From contig NZ_CP080269.1 of NCBI RefSeq assembly GCF_019431355.1, positions 3,428,501 to 3,492,500 of the forward strand: a stretch of 64,000 nucleotides of DNA, read 5' to 3'. The notes beneath the pieces are model-generated. The model was given only the letters and a program-made list of their open reading frames with translations. It was not told where the DNA came from and ran no database searches. How positions within the stretch are numbered: the first letter of the stretch is position 1; every line of letters starts with the position of its first letter. The position numbers and the translations under genes were made by a program. Shown one piece after another: positions 6,888 to 43,811 of the stretch. Source of the DNA: Paenibacillus sp. R14(2021) (lineage in GTDB: Bacteria > Bacillota > Bacilli > Paenibacillales > Paenibacillaceae).

Positions 6888-7373
6888 TCATGATATATCT
6901 ACATTATCAGTCGGCAAGCTAATCGAAATCTTTAAATCTTCTTTATTGAAAGATACCGTTGCTCCATAAGCTTCCGCAATGAAACGCAAATTAACATAGA
7001 ACATATCGTTTACGATAGCTGGTGATTGGCCTAGCTTTATTTTATTATCATTTACATAACCATATATTTCATCAGCTGTTAACTTTATAGTCGTCTTGTC
7101 GTTTTTGGCGAGCAACGTTTTCGTATTATTGTTGAATTCCGCATCGATCTTTAAACTGTCGAAAAACGCTCTAAAGGGAACAAGTGTTGTCCCACTTGGC
7201 ATGATAAAGCCAGTTAGATCTTGCTTAACACCATCAATAAAGATGGTTGGTGTCATGTTCTCATGCGAATAAGTGCCATCTGCACTTACTGCATGTGTTT
7301 GAATGGTACCGCTTGAAACAATCGAAACAGTCAGAAGCGCCAATGCCCATATTTTGTTTGTTTTTTTCATCAT
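6888..7373 (-). CDS. Secreted protein with copper-amine-oxidase-like stalk domain
   Basis: The 161-aa protein starts with ATGATG after AAAGGAG. An N-terminal signal peptide (KIWALALLTVSIVSSGTIQTHA) precedes the stalk domain at about residues 45-155. The domain shows the typical FIDG...PSGTTLVPFRAFFDSL and the repeated FYVNLRFIAEAYGA...ISISLP pattern. Such domains are common in exported Paenibacillus proteins, where they serve as wall-associated modules. There is no catalytic domain. The gene lies between two terminators and so forms its own unit. Confidence 0.85.
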   Translation of the reverse strand: MMKKTNKIWALALLTVSIVSSGTIQTHAVSADGTYSHENMTPTIFIDGVKQDLTGFIMPSGTTLVPFRAFFDSLKIDAEFNNNTKTLLAKNDKTTIKLTADEIYGYVNDNKIKLGQSPAIVNDMFYVNLRFIAEAYGATVSFNKEDLKISISLPTDNVDIS

Positions 7374-7415
7374 TTCTTCACTCTCCTTTAGATTTTCATT
7401 TGATTACTCAAGCTT

Positions 7416-7459
7416 AAAAAGGTAGGTCAGCCTCTTATCTATCAAAGAGATTGACCTAC
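7416..7459 (-). terminator. Rho-independent terminator
   Basis: GTAGGTCA pairs with TGACCTAC around an extra inner stem (ATCTCTT/AAGAGG). CTTTTT follows on the minus strand. It terminates transcription reading from the fragment and lipoprotein gene upstream. Confidence 0.85.
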
Positions 7460-7465
7460 TTCCTA

Positions 7466-7590
7466 CTAACCTGTAACGTTTATTGTTACATTATTACTAG
7501 CGTCCCTTGTAATTGTTGCATGATCTTCCTCGGATACTGAAAAAGAAGAACTTGGAACCGCCACGCCATCGTTCGCAGTTAGCGTAACCA
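7466..7590 (-). pseudogene. C-terminal fragment of an unidentified exported-type protein
   Basis: Directly after the lipoprotein stop codon a frame without a start encodes about 40 residues ending VPSSSFSVSEEDHATITRDASNNVTINVTG. The Ser/Thr/Asn-rich beta pattern resembles the end of a cell-surface repeat domain. The frame begins in a sequence resembling a repeat arm (GTTACGCTAACTGCGAACGATGG), so the fragment may have been cut by recombination at that point. The parent gene is not recognised. Confidence 0.45.
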
Positions 7591-7596
7591 ATTTAG

Positions 7597-8004
7597 CTAT
7601 CCTTCAACTAATTGATAAAATCTAATGTCACCTTTTTCTGTTTCAGCTATCAGTATGTCATTTCGCTCTTTGACACGGAATATCTTTGTTCCCACTTCCA
7701 GTTTATTTGCTGTTCCGTTTTTAAAATCTTTACCAACATTACTTTGGTGACTGATTTCAGTTACTTGTACGTCTTTGGTTAAATTTAACTCCCCTACCCA
7801 TGAAACTCCTGCATTATATATAGTGTCTCTATACATAAAAATATTAGCATTCGAATCCATTCTTAAAACTTCTTGAGCAGTTGGATTTCCAATTGTATTA
7901 GTCTCACTCTGCTGTTCTGAAATCTGCTTGGTGGGTTCTTTTCCGCAACCAATCAACAAAGAAAAACTACATATTACAACATACATAAAAATCCTTTTCA
8001 CCAA
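7597..8004 (-). CDS. Small lipoprotein of unknown function
   Basis: The protein has 135 aa. The signal sequence MVKRIFMYVVICSFSLLIGC ends in a lipobox, with lipid-modified Cys at residue 20. The mature part starts with a Gln/Ser/Thr-rich linker. A compact beta-rich region follows, but I recognise no family. GGGGGG upstream may serve as the ribosome binding site. The gene lies between repeat arms of the cassette array. Confidence 0.75.
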   Translation of the reverse strand: MVKRIFMYVVICSFSLLIGCGKEPTKQISEQQSETNTIGNPTAQEVLRMDSNANIFMYRDTIYNAGVSWVGELNLTKDVQVTEISHQSNVGKDFKNGTANKLEVGTKIFRVKERNDILIAETEKGDIRFYQLVEG

Positions 8005-8076
8005 ATTGTCCCCCCCTTTACAAATCCATTAATTGAAATTGAGACGTGGAAATCCTCACGAATGTTGCAGCCTTTA

Positions 8077-8170
8077 TTCAACTCTCCTGCCCGTTAGTTG
8101 AGAAAACGGCAGCCATAAGCTGGCTGCCGTATCTTCGTGTTTATTCAGCTATCGTTCCCAGTTAGCTCAA
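8077..8170 (-). repeat. Array repeat unit (two arms plus hairpin)
   Basis: The right arm (8077-8102) contains CTGCCCGTTAGTTGAG. The central hairpin (8104-8130) pairs ACGGCAGCC with GGCTGCCGT. The left arm (8143-8170) contains CAGCTATCGTTCCCAGTTAG. On the gene strand the left arm reads as half-sites TTGAGCTA and TAGCTGAA around an 11-nt spacer. A further hairpin (CCACCGAC/GTCGGTGG, 8171-8196) follows. Confidence 0.85.
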
Positions 8171-8227
8171 CCACCGACTGGCGCAAGTGTCGGTGGTTTA
8201 CTGTTAAACTTAGATCCCTTATCGTAA

Positions 8228-9187
8228 TTAATTATTTATTTCAAAACTGTTTAATACAGCATCCCATGCCAGCTCTGATGCAAATAATCCAATATGACCA
8301 GCATTAAGATCTGGGTTATCGACTTCATTGGTTGAAGCCATAAATAAAACGTCACCATCGTCAATTGTGTGAAATGGATATATTGCTCTTGCCATAGAAG
8401 TATGTACCTGTTTGGACAATTGGCGCAAAGAAACAGGCGGTAACTTCTGGTTGGTTACGACTACTGTCAATGTGGTATTTCCTAGCTTCTTAACAGAGTC
8501 ATCCATAAGATTTTCTAAGTTCATATAGCGTGTATTTGTATGGTTATCATAATAACCTCTCACAATCGAACCGTCTCTACCTAAAATGGCTCCCATCGAA
8601 TTGACAACTGTATACACTACAATTTTCGTTGGACCGATTTGCCGAAAAGCTGCACCTTGGCCTCCTGTTTCCCAATGGTTAAACCCTTTTCCTACTTTTG
8701 CTGAACGTCCTGCACCAGTTGCACCCATTGGAAACTTGTTTATTTGTGTACTTAGAAAGGCAGCACTTCCGAGTTGCTTATCTGGGTAGATCGCGTTATC
8801 CCTTCCGACGAAGTCATAGATGGTTGCTGCAGCCACTCTAGGCATAGAATTTGTTGAGTAACCGCTCTGGGCCAATAATTCAGAGGTAACTCCAGTCACA
8901 GCCTCTAATCCATGAACGGAACCGCCAGTTAAACAAATTGCGTCAAGAACTCGCTCTCCAGCAGAAAAATTGTGATTATCGGTAGTGAATGTAGATGGGG
9001 AACCTCCTCTTACATCAACAGCAGCTCTAACTGTTTCTGGAAAGTACAAAACGGTACAACCAGTTGGACCTTCTTTATATTCAGCGATGCCTACCTTTAT
9101 CGCGGGGAAATCATATTCCAGAATAGCTTTGTTAGTGTTTGTATCGGGTTCAAGCGATAGACTATCATTTGATTTACCCATGTACAT
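8228..9187 (-). CDS. P1-family (DmpA/Ntn-type) peptidase
   Basis: The start at ATG 9187 has AGGAGG 10 nt upstream and gives 320 aa. A longer frame from 9409 overlaps the recombinase remnant and is not used. GGSVHGLEAVTGV and GATGAGRSAKVG are typical of the P1 (DmpA-like) aminopeptidase family. VYTVVNSMGAI contains the Asn-Ser at which these N-terminal-nucleophile enzymes cut themselves to free the catalytic Ser. The family acts on N-terminal residues or amides of small peptides. It is a full-length gene in the cassette array with its own promoter. Confidence 0.9.
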   Translation of the reverse strand: MYMGKSNDSLSLEPDTNTNKAILEYDFPAIKVGIAEYKEGPTGCTVLYFPETVRAAVDVRGGSPSTFTTDNHNFSAGERVLDAICLTGGSVHGLEAVTGVTSELLAQSGYSTNSMPRVAAATIYDFVGRDNAIYPDKQLGSAAFLSTQINKFPMGATGAGRSAKVGKGFNHWETGGQGAAFRQIGPTKIVVYTVVNSMGAILGRDGSIVRGYYDNHTNTRYMNLENLMDDSVKKLGNTTLTVVVTNQKLPPVSLRQLSKQVHTSMARAIYPFHTIDDGDVLFMASTNEVDNPDLNAGHIGLFASELAWDAVLNSFEINN

Positions 9188-9226
9188 TATAGAATCCCCT
9201 CCTAAAAGTTGTATATATTTACATTC

Positions 9227-9255
9227 ACAATAATGAACATGCGTTCCCATGTCAA
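9227..9255 (-). promoter_or_regulatory. Sigma-A type promoter of the P1 peptidase gene
   Basis: TTGACA (9255-9250) and TATTGT (9232-9227) are separated by 17 bp on the minus strand. They lie 40 bp upstream of the peptidase start. Confidence 0.6.
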
Positions 9256-9329
9256 TCCATTCAAACATGTATTTCCACGTTAAACTGCACTTTAATTGGA
9301 ATCTCTTGCGGAGAGCCGCTACTGACACA

Positions 9330-10081
9330 CTAAAAAAATCGGCGATAAAGTTCTCTTCTACGCTCTCCACGGAGCTGGGCATAAATTTGTGTGGTCGATG
9401 CTTTTTCATGGCCCAGCATTCCTTGAATAAAATCTAACGGTGCCCCGTTATCCAATAGCTGGCACGCATAAGTATGACGAAAACGATGAGGGTATACGTT
9501 TGCCTCGATCGCTCCTCGAACTGCCAGCCGCTTTATCGCCCACCTGAGTGTTGGAATGGCCATACGCTTAACCGGATTCGTGTCCGTTACAAATAAGGCC
9601 TTACACGAATCCTTACGGCTTGCCAAGTACTTCTTCAACCATACCTTACACTCAGTTGTGAAGTAAATTTCTCTTTGCTTTGAACCTTTCCCATTTACAA
9701 TGGCTGAACAGTTCTCCCAATTTAGATCCTCAATGTTGATTCTCTCGACCTCTCCAATACGGCAGCCTGTGCTGTAGAGAAACTCGAGTAGAGCCTTTTC
9801 CCTTGTAGTCTGACAGGATATCTTTAGATGAATTACATCTTCCTCCATCGAATTCGTTTATCCATTTTAGGCTCACGTAGCTTGAGTGAAGGGTTGGTGG
9901 ATAGATAAGTTTCTTCATATGCAAAACGGAAGAGCGAACGCACAAAACGAATACGGTGCCCTAGACTGCTTGGCTTCAAGCGATCAGATTGCTTAGCTAG
10001 GTAGTCTTTAAGCAGGTTCAGATTAATCTCAGCAATTTCTAGATCCCCAAGTTCTGTTACCAGCATCTTGAGCTGAAGAGC
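9330..10081 (-). pseudogene. Decayed tyrosine recombinase related to the one at 45.5 kb
   Basis: Two frames together cover most of a recombinase. The frame 10066-9833 resembles residues 32-110 of the intact protein (LLKDYLAKQSDRLKPSSLGHR). The frame 9848-9330 holds the catalytic domain with CRIGEV, GKGSKQRE, YPHRFRHTYA, GHEKASTTQ and the Tyr. They are joined by a frameshift near 9840. The N-terminus is lost where the truncated IS110 copy 2 abuts at about 10082. The catalytic domain is very similar to the intact recombinase, so both descend from the same array enzyme. It lies inside the array and cannot make the full protein. Confidence 0.85.
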
Positions 10082-11345
10082 TAGTAATGACGCCCGAGGG
10101 AAAGGAGATTTGTACGTTTCCTACTAAAACTGTTTTTCTGCTTCAGTTAATCGACTGGATTAAGAACCATGGTTGTACTCATGTGGCAATGGAAAGTACA
10201 GGCGTATTTTGGAAGCCAATTGTTAACCTCTTAGAATCTGAGGATATTGAGTTTCTAGTCGTGAATGCCCAGCATATGAAGGCACTTCCAGGACGTAAAA
10301 CCGATGTTAAAGATGCAGAGTGGATTGCCCAACTCCTCCGCCACGGGCTCCTGAAAGCTAGTTTCATTCCAAACCGTACGCAACGTGAACTTCGGGAGTT
10401 AGTTCGGTATCGTCGAAGCATCATTGAAGAACGTGCCAGACAGCACAATCGAATTCAGAAGGTTTTAGAAGGAGCAAACATTAAACTTGGGTCCGTTGTT
10501 TCCGATATTATGGGCGTCTCGTCTAAGGAGATGCTTCGTGCAATTGCAGACGGCGAAGAAGATCCTGAGAAATTGGCAAACCTGGCTCAACGCTCATTGA
10601 AAAAGAAGAAATCAGAACTAGAACTGGCTCTGCGGGGTTACGTAAACCCTCATCAGCGTTTAATGATCAAGACCATTCTAACTCATATCGATTTTCTGTC
10701 GGAACAAATAGAGCGGTTAGATCAAGAGGTTGCCCTGAGAGTTAGCTCATTTCAGGAAGATGTAGAACGCCTGGACTCCATACCAGGTATAGCTCCTCGA
10801 ATGGCGGAACAGATCTTAGCTGAGCTTGGAACAAACATTGAGAAACAGTTTCCTAGTGCGGCTCATTTATGTTCTTGGGCAGCCTTAGTTCCTGGTCACA
10901 ATGAGAGCGCCGGCAAACGAAAGTCTTCCAAAGGAAAGAAAGGAAACAAATATTTGAAATCTGCTTTAACTGAGGCCGCTCATTCAGTGGGTGCATCTAA
11001 AAACTACCTTGGTGCAATGTATCGCCGAGCACTCGCTAAAAAAGGCAGGAAACGAGCCGCTGTTATAGTCGCTCATGCCATGTTAAGAATCGCTTATTAC
11101 TTACTATCTAGAAAAGAAATGTATGTGGACCTAGGCGAAGACTATTTTGAGAGGCATAAACAAGCAGCCATTGTTCGAAATTCCGTTCGAAGACTTGAAA
11201 GCTTAGGATATGCCGTTTCAATCTCAGAAGTTTCTTGATCTACTATCTCCTGATAATGAATTGACGCGGTGCGGCACCTTTAAAAAACTAAAGAACTGCG
11301 CCTCTCTTTGGTTTTGTCTTTTTTAGATGTTACTACGAGATGAAT
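10082..11345 (+). mobile_element. IS110-type insertion sequence, copy 2 (left end deleted)
   Basis: The sequence matches copy 1 (4757-6345) from the 23rd transposase codon to the right end, with a few per cent differences. The left 330 bp, including the bridge RNA region and start codon, are missing and the junction lies in the recombinase remnant. The right end (TTTTCATGG) abuts TAGTTGAGCGAAGGCAGCC, the rest of an array repeat arm. The element therefore sits in a repeat site like copy 1. Confidence 0.85.
10087..11238 (+). pseudogene. IS110 transposase lacking its N-terminus
   Basis: The 383-codon frame starts at an internal ATG. It lacks the first 22 or so residues of copy 1, including GMDVHKDS with the first catalytic Asp of the DEDD domain. 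One codon is also missing relative to copy 1 (KTIIL becomes KTIL). Without the first Asp and the left end it is very likely inactive. Confidence 0.8.
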
Positions 11346-11432
11346 TTTCATGGTAGTTGAGCGAAGGCAGCCGATCTTTTCCGATCGACTGCCTTCGTGT
11401 CTTTGTTACGCTATCGTGCCCGTTAGCGTACT
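11346..11432 (-). repeat. Array repeat unit; right arm interrupted by IS110
   Basis: The hairpin 11363-11396 pairs GAAGGCAGCCGATC with GATCGACTGCCTTC. The left arm 11404-11432 contains GCTATCGTGCCCGTTAGCG. The right arm is cut after TAGTTGAGC by IS110 copy 2. The hairpin is nearly the same as that at 24588-24621. Confidence 0.85.
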
Positions 11433-11446
11433 AGTGTAGGCGAAAT

Positions 11447-11893
11447 TCAGATATTTTTGTATAGCAATCTTAATGTTTGATTTTCCTTGAACTCTCTTTT
11501 TAAATAAAAATTGTAGGCTGGTGCAAATGTGTTGGTCAGCAATATTACGTTATCAATACCTAGAGGCTTGATGTCCGCATAAGTAAACTCAAGCATTTTT
11601 GAACCTATTCCAAGTCCCTGCAACTCAGATTTAACAAAGAACTCTTCAATTAAATATTCCTTACCTCTCCACCATTGCTTTTCCTTCCCAAGTATCGTTG
11701 CAACTATTGAGTTCCCATTAGATTCATCAATTGCTACATACCCTCTAAACCCTGGTGTCTTCCAAAAGTCTAAGAACAATTGTTTAGTAACATCGTATGT
11801 CCATTTATTATTCCAAGGAGGTTGGTTAAACACCTCAATAAATAAGGCTATGCAGCGTTCTAAATCATCCTCAATAAGACTTCTGAAAAGCAT
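11447..11893 (-). CDS. GNAT-family N-acetyltransferase
   Basis: Start ATG 11893 has GAGGGGGAG 6 nt upstream, giving 148 aa. An upstream in-frame ATG has no binding site. The acetyl-CoA binding motif A is VKSELQGLGIGSKML (Q-x-x-G-x-G). Strand/helix order and length fit a single GNAT domain, and NTFAPAYNFYLKREF matches the usual C-terminal motif B. The substrate is unknown. A TATAAT box lies just upstream, so the cassette may carry its own promoter. Confidence 0.88.
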   Translation of the reverse strand: MLFRSLIEDDLERCIALFIEVFNQPPWNNKWTYDVTKQLFLDFWKTPGFRGYVAIDESNGNSIVATILGKEKQWWRGKEYLIEEFFVKSELQGLGIGSKMLEFTYADIKPLGIDNVILLTNTFAPAYNFYLKREFKENQTLRLLYKNI

Positions 11894-11973
11894 GAAGTTC
11901 TCCCCCTCAAAAACAACCATTATACGCTAATATTCGGCTTGCTTTTAAGGATTCCTTCTCGTAGCAGTTTCCC

Positions 11974-12068
11974 AAGTAAACTGCCCGTACTTCAATGAAA
12001 ACGGCAGCTGATCATTAAGCCAGCTGCCGTCGTGTCGTATTGAGCAATAGTCTCCCGTTAGTGCAATA
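11974..12068 (-). repeat. Array repeat unit (two arms plus hairpin)
   Basis: The right arm (AAGTAAACTGCCCGTACTT) is at 11974-11996. The hairpin ACGGCAGCTG/CAGCTGCCGT is at 12001-12030. The left arm with CAATAGTCTCCCGTTAGTG is at 12039-12067. Confidence 0.85.
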
Positions 12069-12118
12069 GATGAAAACTGCTAATACGCTAGCCGAATGTA
12101 GACTGCCTGCTCGTTTAA

Positions 12119-12598
12119 CTAATTACAAACGTCATTACTTTCTTTCTCTAACCATTGAAGATAATTAAATAGCTCTTTAGATTTAGCTTGAAACCTCTTC
12201 GAGTCATACCGAATCACTATTTCATCTTTAATACCGGAGCTTGATGAAAATCCACTTCCATCGGCATTTCTTGTATGTACCCAATTATAAGCTTTCGAAA
12301 TTGTCATTGTCTTTCCATCATTCATAATAATTTTAATTACTGTCGGGTACTTATTAAATTCTGCTGAGCCATGGACAGGTTTTGAAGAGTTTATTCTACC
12401 GATTAAATTGAAAATGATTGTTCTCTCTTGTTCATTAGTCATTTCGCACAATGGAGAATCCGGTGCTCCTGGAAAGTTCCTGACAACCTGCATTGATACA
12501 ACATCTTCGACCTGTACAATTTGCTTTGATGGTGACTTCCAAGCTGTCAGGATTGTGAGTGACAAGATAATTGTAAGTGCAATTTGAAAATTCTTCAT
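12119..12598 (-). CDS. Secreted protein of unknown function
   Basis: The 159-aa protein has an N-terminal hydrophobic segment (FQIALTIILSLTILTAW) acting as signal peptide or anchor. GGAG precedes the ATG. It resembles the array protein at 42431-42919 in layout: a V-x-S-x-Q-V start, an RxxII...INS(A/S)KPV-G middle and a C-terminal LFNYL/LYDWI-type helix. It also shares features with the protein at 30699-31154. No known domain was recognised. These may be diverged copies of one cassette family. Confidence 0.75.
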   Translation of the reverse strand: MKNFQIALTIILSLTILTAWKSPSKQIVQVEDVVSMQVVRNFPGAPDSPLCEMTNEQERTIIFNLIGRINSSKPVHGSAEFNKYPTVIKIIMNDGKTMTISKAYNWVHTRNADGSGFSSSSGIKDEIVIRYDSKRFQAKSKELFNYLQWLEKESNDVCN

Positions 12599-12647
12599 TA
12601 CTAATCCTCCATTTTTGATTTGGTATTATTTTCTCCAAATCAAATCG

Positions 12648-12742
12648 AAGTATCCTGCCGTTAGCGTTATGAAAAATGGAGTAGCTGCCGAGGGCAAACT
12701 GCTCCATGTTGTTGAACTATCGTTCTCCGTTAGCTTAACAAC
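12648..12742 (-). repeat. Array repeat unit (two arms plus hairpin)
   Basis: The right arm 12648-12671 contains TATCCTGCCGTTAGCG. The hairpin 12676-12707 pairs ATGGAGTAGC with GCAAACTGCTCCAT. The left arm 12713-12742 contains ACTATCGTTCTCCGTTAG. The ATGGAG...CTCCAT hairpin type recurs at 17101, 37976 and 42371. Confidence 0.85.
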
Positions 12743-12761
12743 CTCAACAGCACTACATTCA

Positions 12762-13136: not shown

Positions 13137-13151
13137 TATTATCGCTCCTTT

Positions 13152-13181
13152 CCGAACTAACGTCTCCGTTAGTTTAATAAA
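13152..13181 (-). repeat. Single array repeat arm
   Basis: CCGAACTAACGTCTCCGTTAGTTT is an arm without an adjacent hairpin. It lies immediately upstream of the pentapeptide gene and 48 bp from the ABC transporter gene. Confidence 0.75.
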
Positions 13182-13228
13182 GGTGTTTTGTAGGAAAATT
13201 ACCTTCACCAAAATTCAACATCCATTAT

Positions 13229-36090: not shown

Positions 36091-36182
36091 GTTATTCGCC
36101 TTTCTTTAATCAGCATTTGGACTCAGATAACGTCTTATGTACGAACTTCGAAAAATTCATACTCGAAATATTCTGCGAAATG

Positions 36183-36200: not shown

Positions 36201-37960
36201 TCCCTCGGTTTTAAGGGTTTATCTCACATATCCTCACTCATTCGCAGGATTTCATCACCTTGGTTTAGTAATGAAGGTGGGGAAAGCATAGGGTGAGAGC
36301 CGTCAGTCCAGCATATGGGCATGCGGGAACAGAGGAATCGCTTCTGCCATTCCTTTTCGGTTCACTCTACTGCACGCAAACTCCACATGTGCCCTGGTGT
36401 TTACCATCCCATGGCTCGACGGGTCTATGCCCTTACATTCCATCGTCATACTTATCCAAGGTGTGGAGACCGATTGCGTTTAGCGGACGGGTCTAAGCCC
36501 TTTTTGGGCAGGAACTCGGTTCTCCGTGCTTTCTTTGTTGAAATCCCGCGAATGAGTCAATATACGTGACGGATCAATACGTTAAGCCGCTTGTGGAACG
36601 AGATGGCTGGCTTTTTCAGATGAGAATGTTTCTGCTCGATGGACCATACCGATCAGAATTCGTGCCACCTTACCTACAAGCTTAAAGACAGACTGTTGCT
36701 TCTTCATGTGCTTTTTTTGAACATTGTGCTGATGTAATTCTTGAAAGATCGGATTAATTCCGATGAGCTGAATGGTCGCCAGATACAGATATTTCCTCAG
36801 ACTGGAATCTCCCCGTTTGGAGATGACGATCTGTCCTTTCCTTTTCCCCGATGTACTTTCTGCTAGATTCAGACCGGCTTTGCGCAGTAACTGACGTCCA
36901 TGTGCATACTGTCTAAGGTTACCAGCACCTGCCAGGATGGCCGCAACGAAGATCGGACCAAAGCCTTTAATAGAACGGAGCTAAGCGGCCATGGGAATCT
37001 CCTCTAGCAATGCGTGGAGCTGCTTTCCGATGTCTGCTAACAGTTCTGTAATTCGTTCAAACTCTGCGATTAGACGTACAAAATCTTGCTTTGCTTCGGC
37101 TAAAGCTGTATTGTCTCCTACACTCCGCCTAGCTTGCGCAATGAGCTCAGCAGCCTTTTGTGCGCCTGTAGTGCCTCCTGCCCTCTGCATATGTGTTTTC
37201 CACATCGAAATGATCTCCAGTGTTGACCGTCCTGCAAGATCCTGAGGCGTAGGTAATTCCTTCAGTGTATCCATCGAACGTTTACAGGTCCAATCCTTAA
37301 AAACCGAACTGTACTCCGGGAAACGAATATCCAACCACCGAATGATGCGATTTTGCAGCCGAACGCTATTTGCAACCCAAAATTCTCGATCGCTCATCAG
37401 GGTCCGCAACCGCTGAAAAACGTGGGTTTGTTTCGTATGTTCGTAGTAGTAGCCTCGGCTTACTACATCTGCAATGACGAGCGCATCTTTAGGGTCACTC
37501 TTCGATTGACAGTTGTCACGGTTTTCTTTATTTCGTTTTGTCGTTGCTGGATTAACTACGACGACTTGCAACCCTTTACTTGTAAGCCAGTTGGCCAGGT
37601 TCCACCAATAATGACCTGTCGGCTCCATGCCTATGATTACATGGCCTAAACGGTGCTTTTGCTGAATACCTTCCATCCACCGTTGCAGCTTTTCAAACCC
37701 TTCTATGGTATTGCTGAATGAAAGATGCCGATTCGTCAGTACAATCCCACGATAATTTGTAGCCTGTGCCACATGAGTTTCCTTTGCCATGTCGATCCCT
37801 ACAATTAGATGCGAGGTAGTAATTCGTTCGATACGTTGATTTTGTACTTCTGATTGTTTAAACTTCATGATAAGAGCGCCTCCTTGATGTGTTGTGGACA
37901 AACCCATCATACCGAGGCGCTCCTTTTTTGACAAAGGTGATTCCTTAGCCTTAAAGGAAT
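36201..37960 (-). mobile_element. IS1111-type (IS110 family) element D, degenerate
   Basis: This element is more distant from A-C. On the minus strand it begins ATTCCTTTAAGGC and ends near AACCGAGGGA. Its transposase gene carries a nonsense codon. Flanks again belong to one array repeat (arm plus hairpin). Confidence 0.75.
36582..37867 (-). pseudogene. IS1111-group transposase with an in-frame amber codon
   Basis: Start ATG 37867 follows AAGGAGG. The first 296 codons contain the DEDD motifs GIDMAKETHVAQA, GMEPTGHYWW and SDPKDALVIADV. A single TAG at 36981 interrupts the frame. After it the same frame continues with LRSIKGFGPIFVAAILAGAG, the Ser region KAGLNLAESTSGK and a normal C-terminus to TAA 36582. 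One point mutation therefore separates it from a full-length gene. Confidence 0.88.
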
Positions 37961-38045
37961 GTTTAGCTTAATGAAAAATGGAGTAGCTGCCACAAGCAAA
38001 CTGCTCCATGATACGTTGAACTATCGTTTCCCTTTAGATCAACTG
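37961..38045 (-). repeat. Array repeat unit (hairpin plus left arm)
   Basis: After the arm remnant GTTTAGCTTAATG, the hairpin 37976-38010 pairs ATGGAGTAGC with ACTGCTCCAT. The left arm 38014-38045 contains AACTATCGTTTCCCTTTAG. Confidence 0.82.
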
Positions 38046-38071
38046 TGTTATTGCATTTGCTCTGCGATGAG

Positions 38072-38524
38072 TTACTTTTTTCTAAGAAATTGAGTTAAAT
38101 GCAGTGTCTCAGACTTACCATTCCATTTAATAATGCTCATAATTTTCTCGTCCGATTTCCCAACTATACTCACTAATTTATCGTTGCCGTGAATTAAATC
38201 GTCTTCGAATGCAATAGGAAAATAAGCTTTATCTATTCTGTCATAACGGATTGTTACAACAGTATTTCCATTTGACGTGCCATAAGAAAATACAATTTCA
38301 TTAGCGGTTGATAAATCAGATATATTGCCTTTGTAGAAATAGTTAATTACGACATTTTCTTTTGTTGTCTGAGAAGAGGTTGTTGTAAACTGGGCATTCC
38401 AATTCTCACCTTCAGCATAAAAAATAATTTCATTCTCATTTTGTTGATTTTTGGAGCAACCGAAAATAAAGGTGCTTAGTGAAGCCAATAACAAAAGACT
38501 CAAACCAAATCGCTTAACACTCAT
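38072..38524 (-). CDS. Small lipoprotein of unknown function
   Basis: Start ATG 38524 has GGAGGGGG 4 nt upstream, giving 150 aa. The signal peptide RFGLSLLLLASLSTFIFGC ends in a lipobox. The mature part has beta-rich sequence with W-N-A-Q-F and LHLTQFLRKK. This layout is seen in many uncharacterised Bacillales lipoproteins. No domain was recognised. Confidence 0.75.
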   Translation of the reverse strand: MSVKRFGLSLLLLASLSTFIFGCSKNQQNENEIIFYAEGENWNAQFTTTSSQTTKENVVINYFYKGNISDLSTANEIVFSYGTSNGNTVVTIRYDRIDKAYFPIAFEDDLIHGNDKLVSIVGKSDEKIMSIIKWNGKSETLHLTQFLRKK

Positions 38525-38624
38525 AAATCCCCCTCCCATCAATGCTAAACCTTAGCGACGGGCAATATATCTAAATTACCTTATTTTTCCTGTAAGCTTA
38601 TTTACGATTAAGTTGCAATAAAAG

Positions 38625-38711
38625 TTGCGTTATCCTGCCCGTTACTTCAACAAACGAATAAGAGCTGCAGCATGGCAAGCTCCTCATTCAGCCGTTCTCC
38701 TTCAGTTGAAT
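38625..38711 (-). repeat. Array repeat unit with imperfect hairpin
   Basis: The right arm 38625-38652 contains GTTATCCTGCCCGTTACTT. The hairpin 38656-38689 pairs AGAGCTGC with GCAAGCTC imperfectly. The left arm 38686-38711 holds the TGA of the cupin gene. Confidence 0.75.
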
Positions 38712-39136
38712 AGAATAAGGCTCTTGGGATCAAAGCTTTTTGTGAATGTATCTAATTCTGGAGAAGAGAACCAGTCATTTTCCAAATGGGTTCCATATTT
38801 TATTGTATGTATTACAGTGTTTGAAGATAGATAAATATTATGATGAGATAATGGTTTGAAAACTACTATCTCTCCTTCCCGTAATAACTGGAGTTTTATT
38901 TCATCAACAACTTTTTCTATATAAATCAACCATCCAGATTGTACTACGTATAACTCAGAAACTAATTTATGATAGTGACTGTTTTGCCACGCTCCAACTT
39001 CCGAGGCTTCGGTCCGGCAATAAGAACTTCCATCTACCAAGCAGTTTAGCCTAAACTTTCGTTCGCCATTTTTCATGATGTCATGTTTAGTCTCAATACC
39101 ATTAGAACGGGCTTCTTCTTCTGAAATCCTTTGCAT
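38702..39136 (-). CDS. Cupin-fold protein
   Basis: Start ATG 39136 has GGAGG 8 nt upstream, giving 144 aa. The cupin barrel is indicated by WQNSHYHKLVSELYVVQSGW (H-x-H...E) and the later EGEIVVFKPLSHHNIYLSSN. The metal ligands His, His, Glu and His can be matched. It lies 28 bp after the methyltransferase gene without an array arm between them, so the two form one two-gene cassette. A role in sugar or nucleotide-sugar metabolism is possible. Confidence 0.8.
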   Translation of the reverse strand: MQRISEEEARSNGIETKHDIMKNGERKFRLNCLVDGSSYCRTEASEVGAWQNSHYHKLVSELYVVQSGWLIYIEKVVDEIKLQLLREGEIVVFKPLSHHNIYLSSNTVIHTIKYGTHLENDWFSSPELDTFTKSFDPKSLILFN

Positions 39137-39164
39137 CAATATGACCTCCAAAAGAATTTATTAG

Positions 39165-39749
39165 CTAAGTTCTTTTACTATCATTTTTTATTGGTTTTTC
39201 AGCGTCTACAATTAGAGAAACAAAACCTAGCTTTCCTTTAATATTCCTATGGTCAAAACGTTTGGAACGGTATATAAAACCTTTATTTTGATCCCAATCT
39301 GAGTAGTGGAATTTCCCTTCCTCATCACAATACTCAAGTAGTCTCACTTTGAACCCAGTGGCGTTAAACATGGATGTGACTGATCTATAATTGTGTACGA
39401 TCTTATGACTCGCGGCGGGATGATTTACAGGACCAGGTCCTCCAATCTGTATACCTCTTTGATATTCCTCATTAGGAAAATAACCATCGGGAACGGCGCA
39501 ACGTACATAACCGCCAGGCCTTAAAAACTCATAACATATGCTTGCAGCAATTACTCCTTCGTCAAAATCTAAGTGTTCCCAAACATGTTCCGCCAAAATA
39601 GCAGTAATTGTATTAGGTGAGAAACGTTTAAACCATTGGTATCTCTGCAACAAATTTAAATCTGACTCCTGAGTTTGTAACCAATCAGGATTATTGTTAT
39701 AGGCCCCTCCACCAATTACTACTCTAATATCTTCGTTAATAGTCTCCAT
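39165..39749 (-). CDS. SAM-dependent methyltransferase-like protein
   Basis: The 194-aa protein resembles class I methyltransferases of the Methyltransf_11 type. The central motif is AILAEHVWEHLDFDEGVIAA, followed by YEFLRPGGYVRCAVPDGYFP. The N-terminal glycine motif (VVIGGGAYNNNPDWL) is shortened. It is the first gene of a cassette shared with the cupin gene. The substrate is unknown. Confidence 0.8.
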   Translation of the reverse strand: METINEDIRVVIGGGAYNNNPDWLQTQESDLNLLQRYQWFKRFSPNTITAILAEHVWEHLDFDEGVIAASICYEFLRPGGYVRCAVPDGYFPNEEYQRGIQIGGPGPVNHPAASHKIVHNYRSVTSMFNATGFKVRLLEYCDEEGKFHYSDWDQNKGFIYRSKRFDHRNIKGKLGFVSLIVDAEKPIKNDSKRT

Positions 39750-39874
39750 TTATCAACCAACCCCTTTATTGGTATATGGTTAGTGTAGCACATGGATTTT
39801 GGTTATAAATGGAATGTAGTTTCTTCACCATGGAATTTTGTGACTTTCAGTTAAAAAAATTAATAGCGTTCACC

Positions 39875-39971
39875 GTGCTAAACTTCCCGTTAACGCAAAG
39901 AGGCTGCCGAATCCAATATGCCGGCAGCCCTTTCAATTGTTTTTCAACTATCGTCTCCCGTTAGCTTAACG
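39875..39971 (-). repeat. Array repeat unit (two arms plus hairpin)
   Basis: The right arm 39875-39897 contains TAAACTTCCCGTTAACG. The hairpin 39897-39934 pairs GGCTGCCG with CGGCAGCC. The left arm 39940-39971 contains CAACTATCGTCTCCCGTTAG and the TAA of the next gene. Confidence 0.86.
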
Positions 39972-40349
39972 CCTAACTTTTGCATTTTTCGCAATACTCT
40001 CAAGATGATTTAAAAACTGGTCACTATAAGAGTGAAGCGTTATGCTTTCAGTACCGATATAAACAAAAATGGTGTTTCCATGTTTTTTCATTCTTGAAAC
40101 TAGGTATATTTCTTTAACTCTCCATTTTTTAACTCTTCTAAAAAAGTTATAGTAAGTCAAATACTCATTAGTCAACTCAACTTTTGATATCTTGCCAAGC
40201 CCAAATAGTATAAAGAAAATGCCAGTTAGAATTACTATGACACTCATAATTACATCAATAATTGTGTGTTCAATAATAGGTAAAATAGCTAAGCAGAACA
40301 ATAGTAATCCGAAAGGTATCCATGTTTTACTTGGAGTATAAATTTCCAT
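39966..40349 (-). CDS. Small membrane protein with PH-like domain
   Basis: The 127-aa protein has two membrane helices (about residues 12-30 and 33-52). A short beta domain follows (KVELTNEYLTYYNFFRRVKK). The architecture is the same as that of 35638-36090. The TAA stop lies in the array arm (CGTTAAGC). GGGGAATG context upstream is a weak ribosome site. The function is unknown. Confidence 0.65.
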   Translation of the reverse strand: MEIYTPSKTWIPFGLLLFCLAILPIIEHTIIDVIMSVIVILTGIFFILFGLGKISKVELTNEYLTYYNFFRRVKKWRVKEIYLVSRMKKHGNTIFVYIGTESITLHSYSDQFLNHLESIAKNAKVRR

Positions 40350-40443
40350 TTATCATTCCCCTACAATTTTATTAATCGACCGCTCTTCTTATACTTGTAT
40401 ATTTATCTATTATACAATGATTCCACGTTAACCTGCCCTTTAC

Positions 40444-42360
40444 TAGAGTAAAGGGCTGGTCTTCCCAGCCCCTCCTCATCAAACCGTACGTGAGGTTTTC
40501 CCTCATACGGCTTTCCGATGTTCGTCATTCATGAGCGTGCAGACTACAAGAGCTTCTTCAATCCATGTAATTTTGCCAAATACTTTACCTCTGAATAGGA
40601 CCCTATCCATCTCGCTCGTTGCCGTTTCTTCGCATACCATCTTGTGAACCGCTGTAGAATATACCAGTCTAATTTGGCTAATATCCGTTTACCGTAAAAC
40701 GTATTGTAGTAATTTCGCCAACCTTGGATCTTGGGGTTCAGCCATGCAACGTGTTCCTGGAAAGCGTACTTTCGCATACTTGGTGGCGCTAAGCGCTCCT
40801 TCACCACTTCGCGAATCCGCGCTTCCGCTTTTGAAGTTAACCATTGCTGTGTTGAATAATACACTCGTGCTTTGGACGTTTCTGCTTTCGTTCTGCGGTG
40901 ATGCATCCCCAGAAAGTCAAAGCCTTCTTCACCTGTCCATAAACCAACAATCCGTGTTTTGGTCGGATGCAGGGTTAGCTCCAATCGTTCCATAATCCTC
41001 TGGATGAGTTCATAGGCACGCATAGCGTCTTTTCTGGTTTTGCATACGACCACAAAGTCATCTGCATATCGCGTTAATTCTCCACATTGTTTCCCATGGC
41101 GTTCCCACAACAGATCGAAGTAGTTCAGATAGATATTTGCTAGTAAAGGCGAAATCACTCCGCCCTGTGGCGTGCCTAAATCCGAGCGCCGGACACTTCC
41201 TTCTTCCATAACTCCCGCAACAAGCCACTTTCTCACCAATTTCAAGATACGACGATCACTGATTCGCATGGCGATCAGCTTCATTAGCTTCTCTTGGTTG
41301 ATGTTATCGAAGTAGCCTTGGATGTCGACGTCGACCACCCAATTTCCTTTGCGGTTGCATGCTTTACGGATTCGTTCCAGCGCTTGTTTGGCCCCCCTTT
41401 TCGGGCGAAAACCGAACGAGCATTCTTGGAAATCTGCTTCAAAGATAGGTTCAATGACAAGCTTCGTTGCCATTTGCATGACCCGGTCACGAATGGTTGG
41501 GATGCCGAGAGGCCTCTGCTTTCCATCCTTCTTGGGGATGTACTTCCTTCGAACAGGCGAAGGGTGGTAGTCTCCTTCTTTCAGCAGTCCGTGGCACTCT
41601 TCTATGAACTGAAATTCACCTTGCCTCTCAATGTCCGCAAGGGTTTGTTCATCCACACCCGCTGCACCTTTGTTCGCGCGCACTCGCCTCCATGCTTCCC
41701 ACAGAATATCCCTTCTATAGACCTTGTCATACAAAGCATGGAATCTTCGTTTCTTGTTTTCCTTGGCCGCATGACCTAGCTTCTCTTGGAGTTGTTGAAC
41801 GTTTTCTTTTGGTGTTGTTAGCCCTTCGGCATTCACTAACTCGTACCTCCTCAAGAAACATGAACAAAGCAGGGCTCCTTCCCTCCGACAGGTTGTGTTG
41901 TCCTGTCGTTCCTCAGTACTATGAGCCCCTCGGACTCCCTTCCTGCAAGTTGATCATTTCATCTTTTGGACTTATAGACCACTTCGTTACGGTTTTAAAA
42001 AAAAAATCCGTGCAGGGGAGGGTCTCCCCAGTTCACTGTATCCTCTTTCATACCATGCCGATCCCCTTACGCCGGAGGATTCTTCACTGCCGCTCCAAGT
42101 TCGTAGCAGTTTCCGTGGCCTTCACCCATTAAGCCGAGGTTCGGCTTCCTCTTGTCCCTCTTGCGAGGCCTTTTTGACGACGCGGCAGGATTCACTTGAT
42201 GTTACGGCCTGGTATGTCGCTCGCCTTGTCTCTGACATGACTTATGTCGATGCGCTTCTACGCAAAGCTCTCGCCGTACGCAGGCATCCTAGCTACATGG
42301 GGGCTTGGCCCCTCCCATGACCGGACTTTCACCGGCTAGAAGATACATGCCTCTGGGCAC
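40444..42360 (-). mobile_element. Group II intron (IIC-like) inserted in an array repeat
   Basis: On the minus strand the intron starts at GTGCCCAGAGG and ends near CCCTTTACTCTA. Domain V is clear near 40480-40512 (AGCCGTATGAGGG...GTACGGTT), followed by a domain VI stem AGGGGCTGG/CCAGCCC. The 5' flank is the array hairpin plus CATTAAGC. The 3' flank is GTAAAGGGCAGGTTAACG, the missing arm. Class IIC introns insert after hairpins, and a subgroup targets integron attC sites. Confidence 0.85.
40544..41854 (-). CDS. ltrA: Group II intron reverse transcriptase/maturase
   Basis: The 436-aa protein has the retron-type reverse transcriptase domain. FGFRPKRGAKQALE, DVDIQGYFDNI and the catalytic YADD in LTRYADDFVVV are present, with TPQGGVISPLLANIYL. 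The C-terminal maturase domain is WLNPKIQGWRNYYNTFYG. No endonuclease domain follows, as usual for class IIC introns. The frame is intact and the intron is probably active. Confidence 0.95.
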   Translation of the reverse strand: MRRYELVNAEGLTTPKENVQQLQEKLGHAAKENKKRRFHALYDKVYRRDILWEAWRRVRANKGAAGVDEQTLADIERQGEFQFIEECHGLLKEGDYHPSPVRRKYIPKKDGKQRPLGIPTIRDRVMQMATKLVIEPIFEADFQECSFGFRPKRGAKQALERIRKACNRKGNWVVDVDIQGYFDNINQEKLMKLIAMRISDRRILKLVRKWLVAGVMEEGSVRRSDLGTPQGGVISPLLANIYLNYFDLLWERHGKQCGELTRYADDFVVVCKTRKDAMRAYELIQRIMERLELTLHPTKTRIVGLWTGEEGFDFLGMHHRRTKAETSKARVYYSTQQWLTSKAEARIREVVKERLAPPSMRKYAFQEHVAWLNPKIQGWRNYYNTFYGKRILAKLDWYILQRFTRWYAKKRQRARWIGSYSEVKYLAKLHGLKKLL

Positions 42361-42442
42361 GCGCTTAATGAAAAGTGAAGCAGCTGCCACCGGCAAACTG
42401 CTCCATGATTCGTTGTACTAACGTCTCCCGTTAGCGTAACGA
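42361..42442 (-). repeat. Array repeat unit split by the group II intron
   Basis: The hairpin 42371-42407 pairs TGAAGCAGC with ACTGCTCCA imperfectly. The left arm 42411-42442 contains ACTAACGTCTCCCGTTAGCG and the stop codon of the next gene. The right arm lies beyond the intron at 40426-40443. Confidence 0.82.
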
Positions 42443-42919
42443 ACTTATCGTCTCTGATTTCCATCCGTTTTTAATCCAGTCATACAATTCAGGAGAGGAA
42501 ACGCGTTTGCCGCCATCTTTGTCATATATGTTTACCTCTCCTTTCACTGTATTGCAGTTAGTCCATCCAGAACCAGATGTACAATCCCAAGCAAGGTGCA
42601 CTTGATATAACTCCCCTGAATCTGTCTTCATTTCAATGTAGTTTGGAAGGCCGCCTTTTACACTACCTGCACCAACCATTCCATTAACTGGCTTTGCTGA
42701 GTTAATCCATATAACCACTTTCGCGATAATTAATTGACCTCTTTTATCATTTGTTCTAAACATTTGCGAAAGTTTAGCATGTCCAGCCATTCCGCTTACA
42801 ATCTGTAACGATTGAACATCCTCGGTGATTAACGGTTTTTTTGCAGAGAAAATTGAGGGTGAAATAAAGAACGAAATTAGAACCAATAGTAACATTGTAT
42901 GTGAACGTAACTTCTTCAT
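42431..42919 (-). CDS. Secreted protein of unknown function
   Basis: The 162-aa protein has a signal peptide (HTMLLLVLISFFISPSIFSA). The mature part shares its layout with the array protein at 12119-12598: VQSLQIVSG, then RxQLIIAKVVIWINSAKPVN and the final ELYDWIKNGW helix. The last residues (SLR) and TAA are encoded by the array arm. GGATGAAGAG precedes the ATG. The family is not recognised. Confidence 0.75.
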   Translation of the reverse strand: MKKLRSHTMLLLVLISFFISPSIFSAKKPLITEDVQSLQIVSGMAGHAKLSQMFRTNDKRGQLIIAKVVIWINSAKPVNGMVGAGSVKGGLPNYIEMKTDSGELYQVHLAWDCTSGSGWTNCNTVKGEVNIYDKDGGKRVSSPELYDWIKNGWKSETISSLR

Positions 42920-42975
42920 CTCTTCATCCTTTCAAATTTCAAGCTCTTATTAGGACTATTTTTCCAATAGAATTG

Positions 42976-43069
42976 TTAAACTATTCAGCTCGTTAGTTAA
43001 GAAAACGGCAACCATAAGCGGGCTGCCGTTTCTTTGTGCATATTCAGCTAGTTTCCCGTTGGCTTAATC
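42976..43069 (-). repeat. Array repeat unit (two arms plus hairpin)
   Basis: The right arm 42976-43001 contains AAACTATTCAGCTCGTTAGT. The hairpin 43003-43031 pairs AAACGGCA with TGCCGTTT. The left arm 43040-43069 contains CAGCTAGTTTCCCGTTGG. Confidence 0.85.
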
Positions 43070-43071
43070 TG

Positions 43072-43302
43072 TTAATGCAAATGTGGTTGGATTAACAATA
43101 CAAGTCCAATGGCTGCACATATTGCAGTTCCGATTCGAGAAAATACAAAATAAGCAGTCGAAGGTTCTCTTGTTGCTTTCCAACCTTGCGTTATGTTCCA
43201 AAAGGTTTTGGGTCTGATGGTGGCGAACAATGCAGCTCCAGTCCAAAGCACAAGAAAGATTGTTATTACTCCGGAAATAACTTTAACTTCAGGTGGCACC
43301 AT
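43072..43302 (-). CDS. Small membrane protein (DUF6199-like)
   Basis: The 76-aa protein has two membrane helices with the pattern RPKTFWNITQGWKATREPST and YFVFSRIGTAI between them. This P-x-x-x-W...GWK...EPS pattern is that of the DUF6199 family. AAGGAGGAGG precedes the ATG. It is the last clear minus-strand gene of the array toward the recombinase. Confidence 0.78.
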   Translation of the reverse strand: MVPPEVKVISGVITIFLVLWTGAALFATIRPKTFWNITQGWKATREPSTAYFVFSRIGTAICAAIGLVLLIQPHLH

Positions 43303-43367
43303 GTTATCCTCCTCCTTAACTTACAGAATAATCCCAACACCTCTTAATTTCAATTTTTCGGGTAGTG

Positions 43368-43395
43368 ATTCCGCTATCCTGCCCGTTAGCGGAAC
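43368..43395 (-). repeat. Array arm closest to the recombinase with good fit
   Basis: CCGCTATCCTGCCCGTTAGC with half-sites GTTCCGCTA and TAGCGGAAT on the gene strand. It is the last well-preserved arm. Confidence 0.78.
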
Positions 43396-43475
43396 AAGCC
43401 CAACCGTTTTCAACGAAAGTTGAGTTAGCCACCAGAATAATGTAAATTGAATCTTATTACATCAATGGAGGATTT

Positions 43476-43685
43476 ATGCCTAAACTTCGACCAATTATTA
43501 CTCATTCGGATTTCGAAAGAATGAGGATCTTCACACGACCTGTTGACGTATGGCAGCAAGGGGAGCTGCTTGATAAAGGAATTATTATTAAGTCTCATGA
43601 TGATGATAAAGTCACATCAACTAAAAATGAGCATTATTTAAAATCAGCTTGCCTATTTTTTTATGGTTCAACTCACCCTAAGTAA
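43476..43685 (+). CDS. Small protein of unknown function
   Basis: The 69-aa protein lies on the plus strand, against the array direction. GGAGG precedes the ATG by 4-5 nt. The sequence is basic and soluble (RPIITHSDFERMRIFTRPVD) and matches no known family. It may belong to the recombinase region rather than to a cassette. Confidence 0.5.
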   Translation: MPKLRPIITHSDFERMRIFTRPVDVWQQGELLDKGIIIKSHDDDKVTSTKNEHYLKSACLFFYGSTHPK

Positions 43686-43696
43686 GACTCTAGTTA

Positions 43697-43811
43697 GTAG
43701 AGTTGGCTGCTGTCTTCGTGTTATTAACTATTGCTCCCCACTGAGCGGCTATTACACTAGCTGCCGGTTCTACGTGATTATGGAGCAAATGTGTCCCTTT
43801 AGCGTACATAT
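43697..43811 (-). repeat. Degenerate array repeats
   Basis: GGCTGCTGTCTTCGTGTTAT and ATTGCTCCCCACTGAGCGG follow the order of hairpin and left arm seen at 24560-24658, with many changes. A further TGTGTCCCTTTAGCGTAC lies at 43791-43808. These look like worn sites at the old end of the array. The gap 43686-43948 has no gene. Confidence 0.45.

What the first reader, a model, noticed from the sequence alone, without database searches (positions are those of the whole stretch)
6888..43811. Integron-like cassette array in a Firmicute: about 25 unrelated small genes in one orientation, separated by attC-like palindromes
Seen: small genes of unrelated families lie on the minus strand one after another, each bounded by copies of the same imperfect palindrome, at about 25 sites. 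Some units have one gene, one has two (methyltransferase plus cupin), and some spacers are empty or hold gene fragments. A tyrosine recombinase lies at the upstream end. Known: this layout defines integron cassette arrays, which are mainly described in Proteobacteria and other Gram-negative phyla. Inferred: the recombinase inserts and removes these cassettes. The repeats do not fit the canonical RYYYAAC/GTTRRRY attC boxes, so this may be a separate system.
Basis: partly seen in the sequence, partly recalled or inferred. Interest (0 to 1): 0.95.

Follow-up and report, generated by a model that had tools for sequence, protein, structure and literature searches.

The report
Integron-like gene-cassette arrays without integron integrase
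In this bacterium and its Paenibacillus relatives, dozens of unrelated small genes lie in one-way arrays joined at a short repeated DNA site, and the same genes recur elsewhere with different neighbours whose junctions fall inside that site, so the arrays are likely reshuffled by a dedicated recombinase that is not the one that defines integrons.

Summary
The window holds 40 copies of a ~28-bp core site on the minus strand between 43.8 and 7.6 kb, separating unrelated small genes downstream of a tyrosine recombinase. The genome has three more clusters (one loose), and the composite element occurs in 122 of 197 genomes of the family.

When a gene is found in two contexts, homology often stops inside a core site in both copies: after removing blocks with known transposons, introns or the recombinase, 47 of 156 block ends and 28 of 152 starts, against 0.04% of random pairs. 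Identity runs through CTAACGGG, then collapses.

It is not an integron by the tests run: the recombinase is Xer-like and far below the IntI cut-off, as are all scored matches in 197 genomes. Breakpoints fall at both core sites of the attC-like element, so genes and hairpins separate; the recombinase gene is itself a module in the hairpin's place. Diverged versions sit on two plasmids.

Best reading: a second, I2-less, Xer-type cassette system of Bacillales. Exchange at the sites is shown; that this recombinase does it is inferred.

The parts
45523..46365 (-). Xer-like tyrosine recombinase (280 aa), proposed cassette recombinase; catalytic R138 K162 H229 R232 H255 Y264 present
44621..45484 (-). 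ATP-dependent DNA ligase-like gene directly after the recombinase; role unknown
   Evidence: PF01068; another copy, 90% identical, in own locus L054; in no other of the 58 pieces searched
9330..9848 (-). truncated second recombinase copy inside the array; the 5' part is missing and an IS110-family element lies on that side
   Evidence: PF00589; 75% identical to residues 109-280 with an R-type site after it
7560..43808 (-). cassette array: 40 core sites, L-type about RTTNAGCTAACGGGNNACGATAGNTNAAY and R-type about RTTNAACTAACGGGCAGGATAGTTNAAY
8072..8174 (-). complete element (L site, hairpin, R site)
   Evidence: 84.2 bits
24556..24661 (-). complete element, best in the window
   Evidence: 91.2 bits
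25187..25294 (-). complete element
   Evidence: 65.2 bits
27651..27758 (-). complete element
   Evidence: 79.6 bits
39868..39973 (-). complete element
   Evidence: 59.5 bits
42971..43071 (-). complete element
   Evidence: 53.0 bits
12640..12742 (-). complete element
   Evidence: 52.8 bits
11966..12070 (-). complete element
   Evidence: 52.9 bits
17134..17240 (-). complete element
   Evidence: 50.4 bits
34159..34261 (-). complete element
   Evidence: 48.4 bits
35542..35569 (-). single core site between two genes, no hairpin; the same upstream gene is followed by an L site and hairpin sequence in another own-genome cluster
   Evidence: 98.6% homology over 653 bp ending in this site
40430..42370 (-). 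group II intron (RT/maturase 41854-40544; outer limits approximate) inserted in the right core site of an element, on the strand of the cassettes
   Evidence: TIGR04416; RF02003 and RF00029; edges
36184..37950 (-). IS110-family element splitting a right core site at CTAA/CGGG (limits approximate)
28515..30295 (-). IS110-family element inserted in a core site (limits approximate)
   Evidence: NF033542; edges
22307..24075 (+). IS110-family element inserted in a core site (limits approximate)
31562..33335 (+). IS110-family element inserted in a core site (limits approximate)

Best explanation
The window holds an integron-like array in which unrelated gene modules and separate hairpin modules are joined at a shared ~28-bp core site, inside which many homologous modules in this and other genomes begin or end, and the array is likely built and reshuffled by a dedicated Xer-type tyrosine recombinase whose own gene is one of the modules. 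Shown: at these junctions identity runs through ...CTAACGGG and stops there or, at R sites, after the CAG. There are two site classes by spacer, L (about GGRNAAC) and R (GGGCAG), alternating mostly as gene-L-hairpin-R-gene. The recombinase gene occupies the hairpin position (L-int-R). The same gene is found followed by different hairpins, by no hairpin, or by the recombinase module. Inferred: the recombinase binds the inverted arms, cuts within the shared AACGGG core and recombines mostly like with like (L with L, R with R), so one gene plus one hairpin is excised or inserted at a time and the alternating order maintains itself. Also inferred: the sites work mainly as double-stranded DNA, and clusters without a recombinase gene are served in trans.
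For: Sites: 447 against 28 shuffled in 860 kb; 965 in 1.61 Mb, with few independent sites on the other strand (29 beside 447; 24 beside 527 in the 21 added pieces). Breakpoints: of 206 low-copy homologous blocks, 48 with window-type transposase, intron RT or recombinase sequence were removed; in the other 158, both copies end at a site in 47 of 156 ends and start at one in 28 of 152 starts; with a conserved arm required on the block's side 40 and 18; random pairs 0.0004. Identity in pairs of at least 90%: L/L ends (n=14) 1.00 at position 13, 0.29 at 14; mixed (n=3) 0.00 at 14; R/R (n=7) 1.00 to position 16, 0.43 at 17. Example: an APH-like gene in two own-genome clusters, another genus (G040, 96-97%), L011 and G008, followed by different hairpins or none. 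Recombinase as module: 36 hits of at least 50% identity and 100 aa, 22 with an L site 63-123 nt upstream and 10 with an R site just downstream; gene followed by hairpin in one genome and by the recombinase in another (L012/L035, L019/L036; two places in G094, 98.2%). Like-with-like: 54 of 58 strict double breakpoints keep site class. Alternation: 9 hairpin-hairpin neighbours against 71.7 +/- 5.7 permuted. 25 of 25 genomes with the recombinase have elements, against 97 of 172 without (Fisher p 2.9e-6). Relatives 52-53% identical on two plasmids and in G460 come with changed site consensus that keeps GGCAG in one class.
Against: No circular intermediate, excision or recombinase activity was observed. 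97 of 172 genomes without a recombinase hit (E<=1e-80) still carry elements, so another enzyme could act. Most block ends are not at sites (with the filter 109 of 156 ends and 124 of 152 starts are not at a site in both copies). IS110-family elements insert in these sites and inflated the first breakpoint count (54 of 204 and 35 of 200); the filter knows only the window's transposases, so some other elements may remain. L/L starts are less sharp than ends. 4 of 58 strict double breakpoints mix classes. Gene-to-gene junctions are 146 L and 116 R, which like-with-like alone does not explain. In the window itself no core site lies directly beside the recombinase: a transposase lies upstream and the ligase gene downstream. 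Of six plasmids fetched, only two show arrays with the matrix used. Relatedness of genomes and blocks was not modelled, so the counts are not fully independent.
Confidence: 0.75

Rival explanations
1. Host XerC/XerD (or another housekeeping recombinase) recombines the core sites, as in dif modules of Acinetobacter; the linked recombinase is only one more passenger module.
For: 97 of 172 genomes without a recombinase hit carry elements; the modules resemble dif modules.
Against: 25 of 25 recombinase-bearing genomes have elements. The recombinase is found between an L site (22 of 36 hits) and an R site (10 of 36) in the orientation of the array. In a diverged clade recombinase and site consensus have both changed while the L-int-R layout is kept (two plasmids). 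dif modules use inversely oriented sites; here sites are direct repeats.
Confidence: 0.13
2. The linked recombinase acts on folded single strands, as IntI does on attC: left and right core sites pair around the hairpin and form one composite site.
For: Two core sites around a variable hairpin, with one extra base in the left spacer, is the layout of attC (recalled); the hairpin stem covaries (6 of 8 pairs changed on both sides); 86% of 237 hairpins fold at least 3 kcal/mol below their shuffles; layout kept in a diverged clade.
Against: No covariation between outer arms beyond the consensus: 1.233 against 1.157 +/- 0.074, 155 of 1000 permutations as high. Breakpoints fall at the left site at least as often as at the right (strict ends 23 L/L, 13 R/R; starts 9 and 9), whereas the integron crossover is at R' only (recalled). 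No IntI-specific region.
Confidence: 0.2
3. A true integron whose IntI and attC have drifted.
For: Array layout, one-way cassettes, group II intron and IS110-family insertions in the sites.
Against: IntI model 98 bits against cut-off 265, split around an unmatched model stretch 181-234 that spans only about 15 residues here; no scored match over the cut-off in 197 genomes (10 candidates scored per genome); genes and hairpins separate.
Confidence: 0.04
4. Hairpins are MITE-like derivatives of a mobile recombinase element that settles beside genes, and ordinary homologous recombination shuffles the region.
For: The recombinase module and hairpin modules share the same kind of 5' end and the same position.
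Against: Gene-gene junctions without hairpins break at the same core site. Breakpoints lie inside a ~28-bp site with an abrupt loss of identity. Arrays are one-way and alternate.
Confidence: 0.06

Closest known systems
Integrons (IntI / attC / attI)
   Same: One-way arrays of unrelated small genes; genes mostly followed by an element of two core sites around a variable hairpin; site-bounded gain and loss; clusters without a recombinase (like CALINs); a group II intron and IS110-family insertions in the sites.
   Different: Recombinase is Xer-like, without the IntI-specific region; sites are not RYYYAAC/GTTRRRY; junctions at both core sites, so gene and hairpin separate; recombinase gene sits between L and R sites in place of a hairpin; no attI identified.
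dif modules (pdif, XerCD) of Acinetobacter plasmids
   Same: Gene modules bounded by Xer-type sites; two module classes that alternate; recombination governed by matching spacers (passages of PMC13141974); IS elements that target the sites (start of the abstract of PMC10132070 in a search listing).
   Different: There the sites are inversely oriented and the enzymes are host XerC and XerD; here sites are direct repeats, hairpin modules alternate with genes, and a dedicated single recombinase travels as a module.
IMEX and phage-type integrative elements (recalled)
   Same: Tyrosine recombinase and a short core site split by insertion.
   Different: Not a lone element at one target but serial arrays of dozens of modules.

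Membership tests
Integron | Integrase of the IntI family with the extra domain (I2 helix) | tested here: not met
   98 bits against cut-off 265; model positions 181-234 unmatched; no scored match over cut-off in 197 family genomes.
Integron | attC core sites RYYYAAC and GTTRRRY | tested here: not met
   Consensus over elements is RTTNAGCTAAC...GTTNAAY; near but different.
Integron | attC fold: R''/R' and L''/L' pairing around a variable stem | tested here: inconclusive
   Stem covaries; outer arms show no covariation beyond consensus.
Integron | Cassette = gene plus its whole attC, crossover at R' only | tested here: not met
   Strict block ends: 23 L/L, 13 R/R, 4 mixed; same gene with different hairpins.
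Integron | attI site next to intI | tested here: inconclusive
   No distinct attI recognised; the R site after the recombinase in L028 is followed by a cassette that in L017 follows an ordinary element (88%).
Integron | Array of unrelated genes in one orientation | tested here: met
dif modules | Modules bounded by inversely oriented dif-like sites | tested here: not met
   L and R sites read in the same direction.
dif modules | Recombination by host XerC and XerD | not testable with these tools
   Needs biochemistry; a dedicated recombinase is linked.
dif modules | Exchange between sites with matching spacers | tested here: met
   54 of 58 strict double breakpoints keep spacer class; inferred from sequence, not observed as a reaction.
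Xer-type tyrosine recombinase | PF00589 catalytic domain with R-K-H-R-H-Y | tested here: met
   nearest solved relatives by sequence XerD, Xer-like, XerA.
XerC or XerD proper | NCBIfam equivalog cut-off | tested here: not met
   195.9 against 335.15 and 193.4 against 329.6.

The most novel reading that the evidence does not exclude
Bacillales run a second, independently organised integron system: a Xer-type recombinase without the I2 helix, recombining plain double-stranded core sites, assembles long one-way gene arrays, with the recombinase itself travelling as a cassette and hairpin cassettes alternating with genes. Such a system would be the natural example of cassette capture before, or without, the single-strand innovation of IntI.
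Probability: 0.5. Interest if true: 0.95.

Novelty: new variant of a known kind. Interest (0 to 1): 0.86.

Why it matters
Integrons are described as rare in Firmicutes: IntegronFinder 2.0 reports one complete integron there and a few CALINs (passages of PMC9024848). Elements of this system occur in 122 of 197 genomes of one Firmicutes family, so a large cassette gene pool has probably gone uncounted. A module shared at 96-97% between genera points to recent transfer. It also bears on how integrons arose. An experimental study holds that IntI evolved from a double-strand Xer-like recombinase by gaining I2, and notes the lack of intermediates (passages of PMC7790495). A cassette array served by an I2-less recombinase would make that question testable in living strains. 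The simple sites and single recombinase could also be useful for building gene arrays.

Tried and rejected
True integron: rejected on the recombinase and site tests.

First breakpoint count: 54 of 204 ends and 35 of 200 starts. On rechecking, 47 of the 206 blocks carried window-type transposase or intron RT sequence and one the recombinase; IS110-family elements insert in the sites and so make block ends there by themselves. The filtered count is now the main one. A block of 1,537 bp at 100% in G040 that I had taken as an example has a poor arm at its end and may be such an element; it is dropped. The first identity profile included recombinase modules and such blocks; one search replaces it.

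Composite element as one folded attC: covariation of arms within elements and within modules gave no signal above permutation. My first expectation, that a gene module's own two ends would covary as in a circularised cassette, also failed (gene modules z 0.0, hairpin modules -1.9).

Site class as a property of the downstream module only: fits hairpin and recombinase modules (L) and genes after hairpins (R), but gene-to-gene junctions are mixed (146 L, 116 R), so not adopted as a rule.

Hairpins as intrinsic terminators: only 24% of hairpins have 5 or more T in the 8 nt after the stem; undecided. The mean energies printed are wrong (at least one bad row); one search corrects them.

Shine-Dalgarno-sequestering hairpin in the recombinase leader: inverted repeat seen by eye in the alignment, but RNAalifold gave no pairs; left open.

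Recombinase tree: only the grouping of window, Paenibacillus, plasmid and G460 copies was looked at, and its support as a whole is 88/87 (open); row own_L001 is a wrongly picked reading frame, so the outgroup part is unusable.

Phages: no recombinase relative at 1e-50. Array stretch of CP053689.1 in other plasmids: none at 1e-20. Four of six fetched plasmids showed 0-2 sites with the matrix from CP053689.1.

Literature: nine full-text searches on integrons or cassette arrays in Paenibacillus, Bacillus, Firmicutes or Gram-positives, and on dif modules listed no paper whose title or abstract start describes this system; subscription papers and preprints are not in that library. The few Firmicutes CALINs of IntegronFinder 2.0 may include some of these arrays.


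Full report
1. The observation. On the minus strand of the window a ~28-bp motif recurs between 43.8 and 7.6 kb. A simple consensus scan gives 34 distinct places of at least 16 of 24 against 1-4 in five shuffles. Weight matrices built from the elements scoring at least 34 give 40 sites in the array; over 860 kb the same threshold gives 447 real and 28 shuffled sites. Complete elements consist of a left core site (about RTTNAGCTAACGGGNNACGATAGNTNAAY), a GC-rich hairpin (inner length about 41 nt), and a right core site (about RTTNAACTAACGGGCAGGATAGTTNAAY). The stem covaries: 6 of its 8 pairs have changes on both sides. Over the whole structure 75.2% of cells pair, against 71.7 +/- 1.0 in column shuffles and 18-44% when the structure is slid.

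2. The genes. Of 29 cassette proteins in the window given to Pfam, 16 match unrelated families: two GNAT acetyltransferases, glyoxalase, amidase, nucleotidyltransferase, SUKH, Imm8 (below its cut-off), pentapeptide repeat, DsbA, FMN oxidoreductase, P-loop kinase, S58 peptidase, copper-amine-oxidase-type domain, endonuclease/phosphatase family and two ABC transporters. The other 13 have no match at 1e-3.

3. The genome and the family. A covariance model of the element finds 66 matches in the own genome at E<=0.1: 5 at 0.92-1.04 Mb (+), 20 at 1.54-1.64 Mb (-), 13 in the window (-), 22 at 5.77-5.82 Mb (+) and 6 elsewhere (only 150 of 2,127 first-look candidates were scored). At E<=1e-6 it finds elements in 122 of 197 genomes of the family, 14 of 19 genera (at most 20 candidates scored per genome). 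A close recombinase (E<=1e-80) is in 25 of 197, and all 25 have elements (Fisher p 2.9e-6).

4. Exchange at the sites. I collected 58 array pieces, 1.61 Mb, with 965 sites, and compared them all against all. A first count over 206 low-copy homologous blocks in array orientation gave 54 of 204 ends and 35 of 200 starts at a site in both copies, against 0.0004 of random position pairs and 0.0027 of interior positions. Because IS110-family elements insert in these sites, I removed 48 blocks with window-type transposase, intron RT or recombinase sequence: 47 of 156 ends and 28 of 152 starts remain, and 40 and 18 if the block must carry a conserved arm of its own. By class these strict cases are 23 L/L, 13 R/R and 4 mixed ends, and 9 L/L and 9 R/R starts. 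Identity across junctions of pairs of at least 90% is sharp at ends: L/L (n=14) 1.00 at the last G of CTAACGGG and 0.29 at the next base; mixed (n=3) 0.00; R/R (n=7) holds through CAG and falls to 0.43. R/R starts (n=4) are sharp, L/L starts (n=8) less so. Examples are: an APH-like gene (family name recalled from its sequence) found in two own-genome clusters (99.1%), in G040 of another genus (96-97%), in P. contaminans (408 bp, contig edge) and in G008, followed by different hairpins or none; the gene before 35,542 in the window, followed by a bare site here and by an L site with hairpin sequence elsewhere (98.6%); the gene before 12,066, followed by different hairpins in two own clusters (97.3%).

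5. The recombinase as a module. 36 recombinase hits of at least 50% identity and 100 aa lie in these pieces, all in the array's orientation where the piece has sites (L034 has none); 22 have an L site 63-123 nt before the start (one more has an R site) and 10 have an R site just after the end. Upstream flanks of copies 94-99.8% identical differ up to the left core site, and downstream flanks differ after GGGCAG. The same gene is followed by a hairpin in one genome and by the recombinase module in another (L012/L035 at 82.5%; L019/L036 at 84.6%, where homology ends shortly before the site), and a 3.1-kb block in G094 is followed by the recombinase in one place and not in the other (98.2%). So hairpin and recombinase modules take the same place.

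6. Order. Gene and hairpin modules alternate: 9 hairpin-hairpin neighbours against 71.7 +/- 5.7 in permuted arrays (92 runs, 827 modules, 275 hairpins). Sites from gene to hairpin are L in 224 of 233, from hairpin to gene R in 221 of 231; gene-to-gene sites are mixed (146 L, 116 R). Like-with-like recombination would keep this order, since L to L or R to R carries one gene and one hairpin; this is inference.

8. Beyond the family. Relatives 41-54% identical are on 8 of 72,556 plasmid records, 7 of them named as Bacillaceae or Planococcaceae, and in 1 of 299 genomes across the phylum outside the own family (G460, 53%). Around the relative on plasmid CP053689.1 (filed under Arthrobacter citreus; the name may be wrong) lie 33 sites of a related consensus on the strand of the small genes, none after shuffling (24 of the 33 were used to build the matrix), with L-hairpin-R pairs and the recombinase between an L and an R site, here turned against the genes. 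The Sporosarcina plasmid has 6 such sites and the same L-int-R flanks; four other fetched plasmids show 0-2. In G460, 26 of 29 ORFs of at least 90 aa around one copy lie on one strand, with repeats that keep GGGCAG in one site class. Site consensus and recombinase thus seem to have changed together, which speaks for the linked recombinase as the enzyme.

9. Parallels to integrons. The group II intron and four related IS110-family elements in the window array sit inside core sites. A paper on group II introns in integrons describes group IIC introns in attC sites, usually turned against the cassettes (passages of PMC7923331); the intron here lies on the cassettes' strand, and its class was not settled. 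IS1111-type elements in attC are recalled, not from a call.

10. Verdict. Junctions of shared modules inside the core sites are shown by sequence. The system works like an integron but fails integron membership on the recombinase, the site consensus and the cassette definition. It shares spacer-governed module exchange with dif modules but differs in site orientation and in having its own travelling recombinase. No experiment was run, and the link between recombinase and exchange is inference.

Noticed in passing
L055 12743-18442 and window 888-2600: Tn7-like genes (TnsA, a TniB/TnsC-type ATPase, a large TnsB-like protein with only a sub-threshold Mu-transposase C-terminal match, two TnsD) next to the array; repeats like those of a transposon end at window 6503-6795. 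glmS (named from its sequence, recalled) ends at 48437 on the other side of the array, so the array lies in a region of layered insertions downstream of glmS.
   Followed up: partly
window 47900-48420: Several copies of TTAAAGAACTTTATTTT and of AGTTACA...TTTAT just downstream of glmS, possibly ends of another element.
   Followed up: no
window 44621-45484; L054 17103-17954: ATP-dependent DNA ligase-like gene after the recombinase, with another copy 90% identical near 1.04 Mb; may be a cassette or an accessory factor.
   Followed up: partly
window 46354-46440 and the same place in relatives: Conserved inverted repeat CCTCCCAA...TTGGGAGG before the recombinase start codon could hide its ribosome-binding site; no consensus structure was returned by RNAalifold.
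   Followed up: partly
window 2686-3717: DndB/DpdB-like protein beside TnsD.
   Followed up: no
window 5012-6232 and 10087-11238: Two similar IS110-family copies (ORFs of 406 and 383 aa) that each abut ACTA; one in the transposon-end region, one in a cassette hairpin's right arm.
   Followed up: partly
L108 (CP053689.1): Plasmid filed as Arthrobacter citreus NEB 577 carries a recombinase and array otherwise seen on Bacillales plasmids; the organism name deserves a check.
   Followed up: no
G154, G123, G026, G180, G075, G150: Genomes with 20 scored elements (the cap) and no close recombinase hit at E<=1e-80: possible CALIN-like clusters or a more distant recombinase.
   Followed up: no
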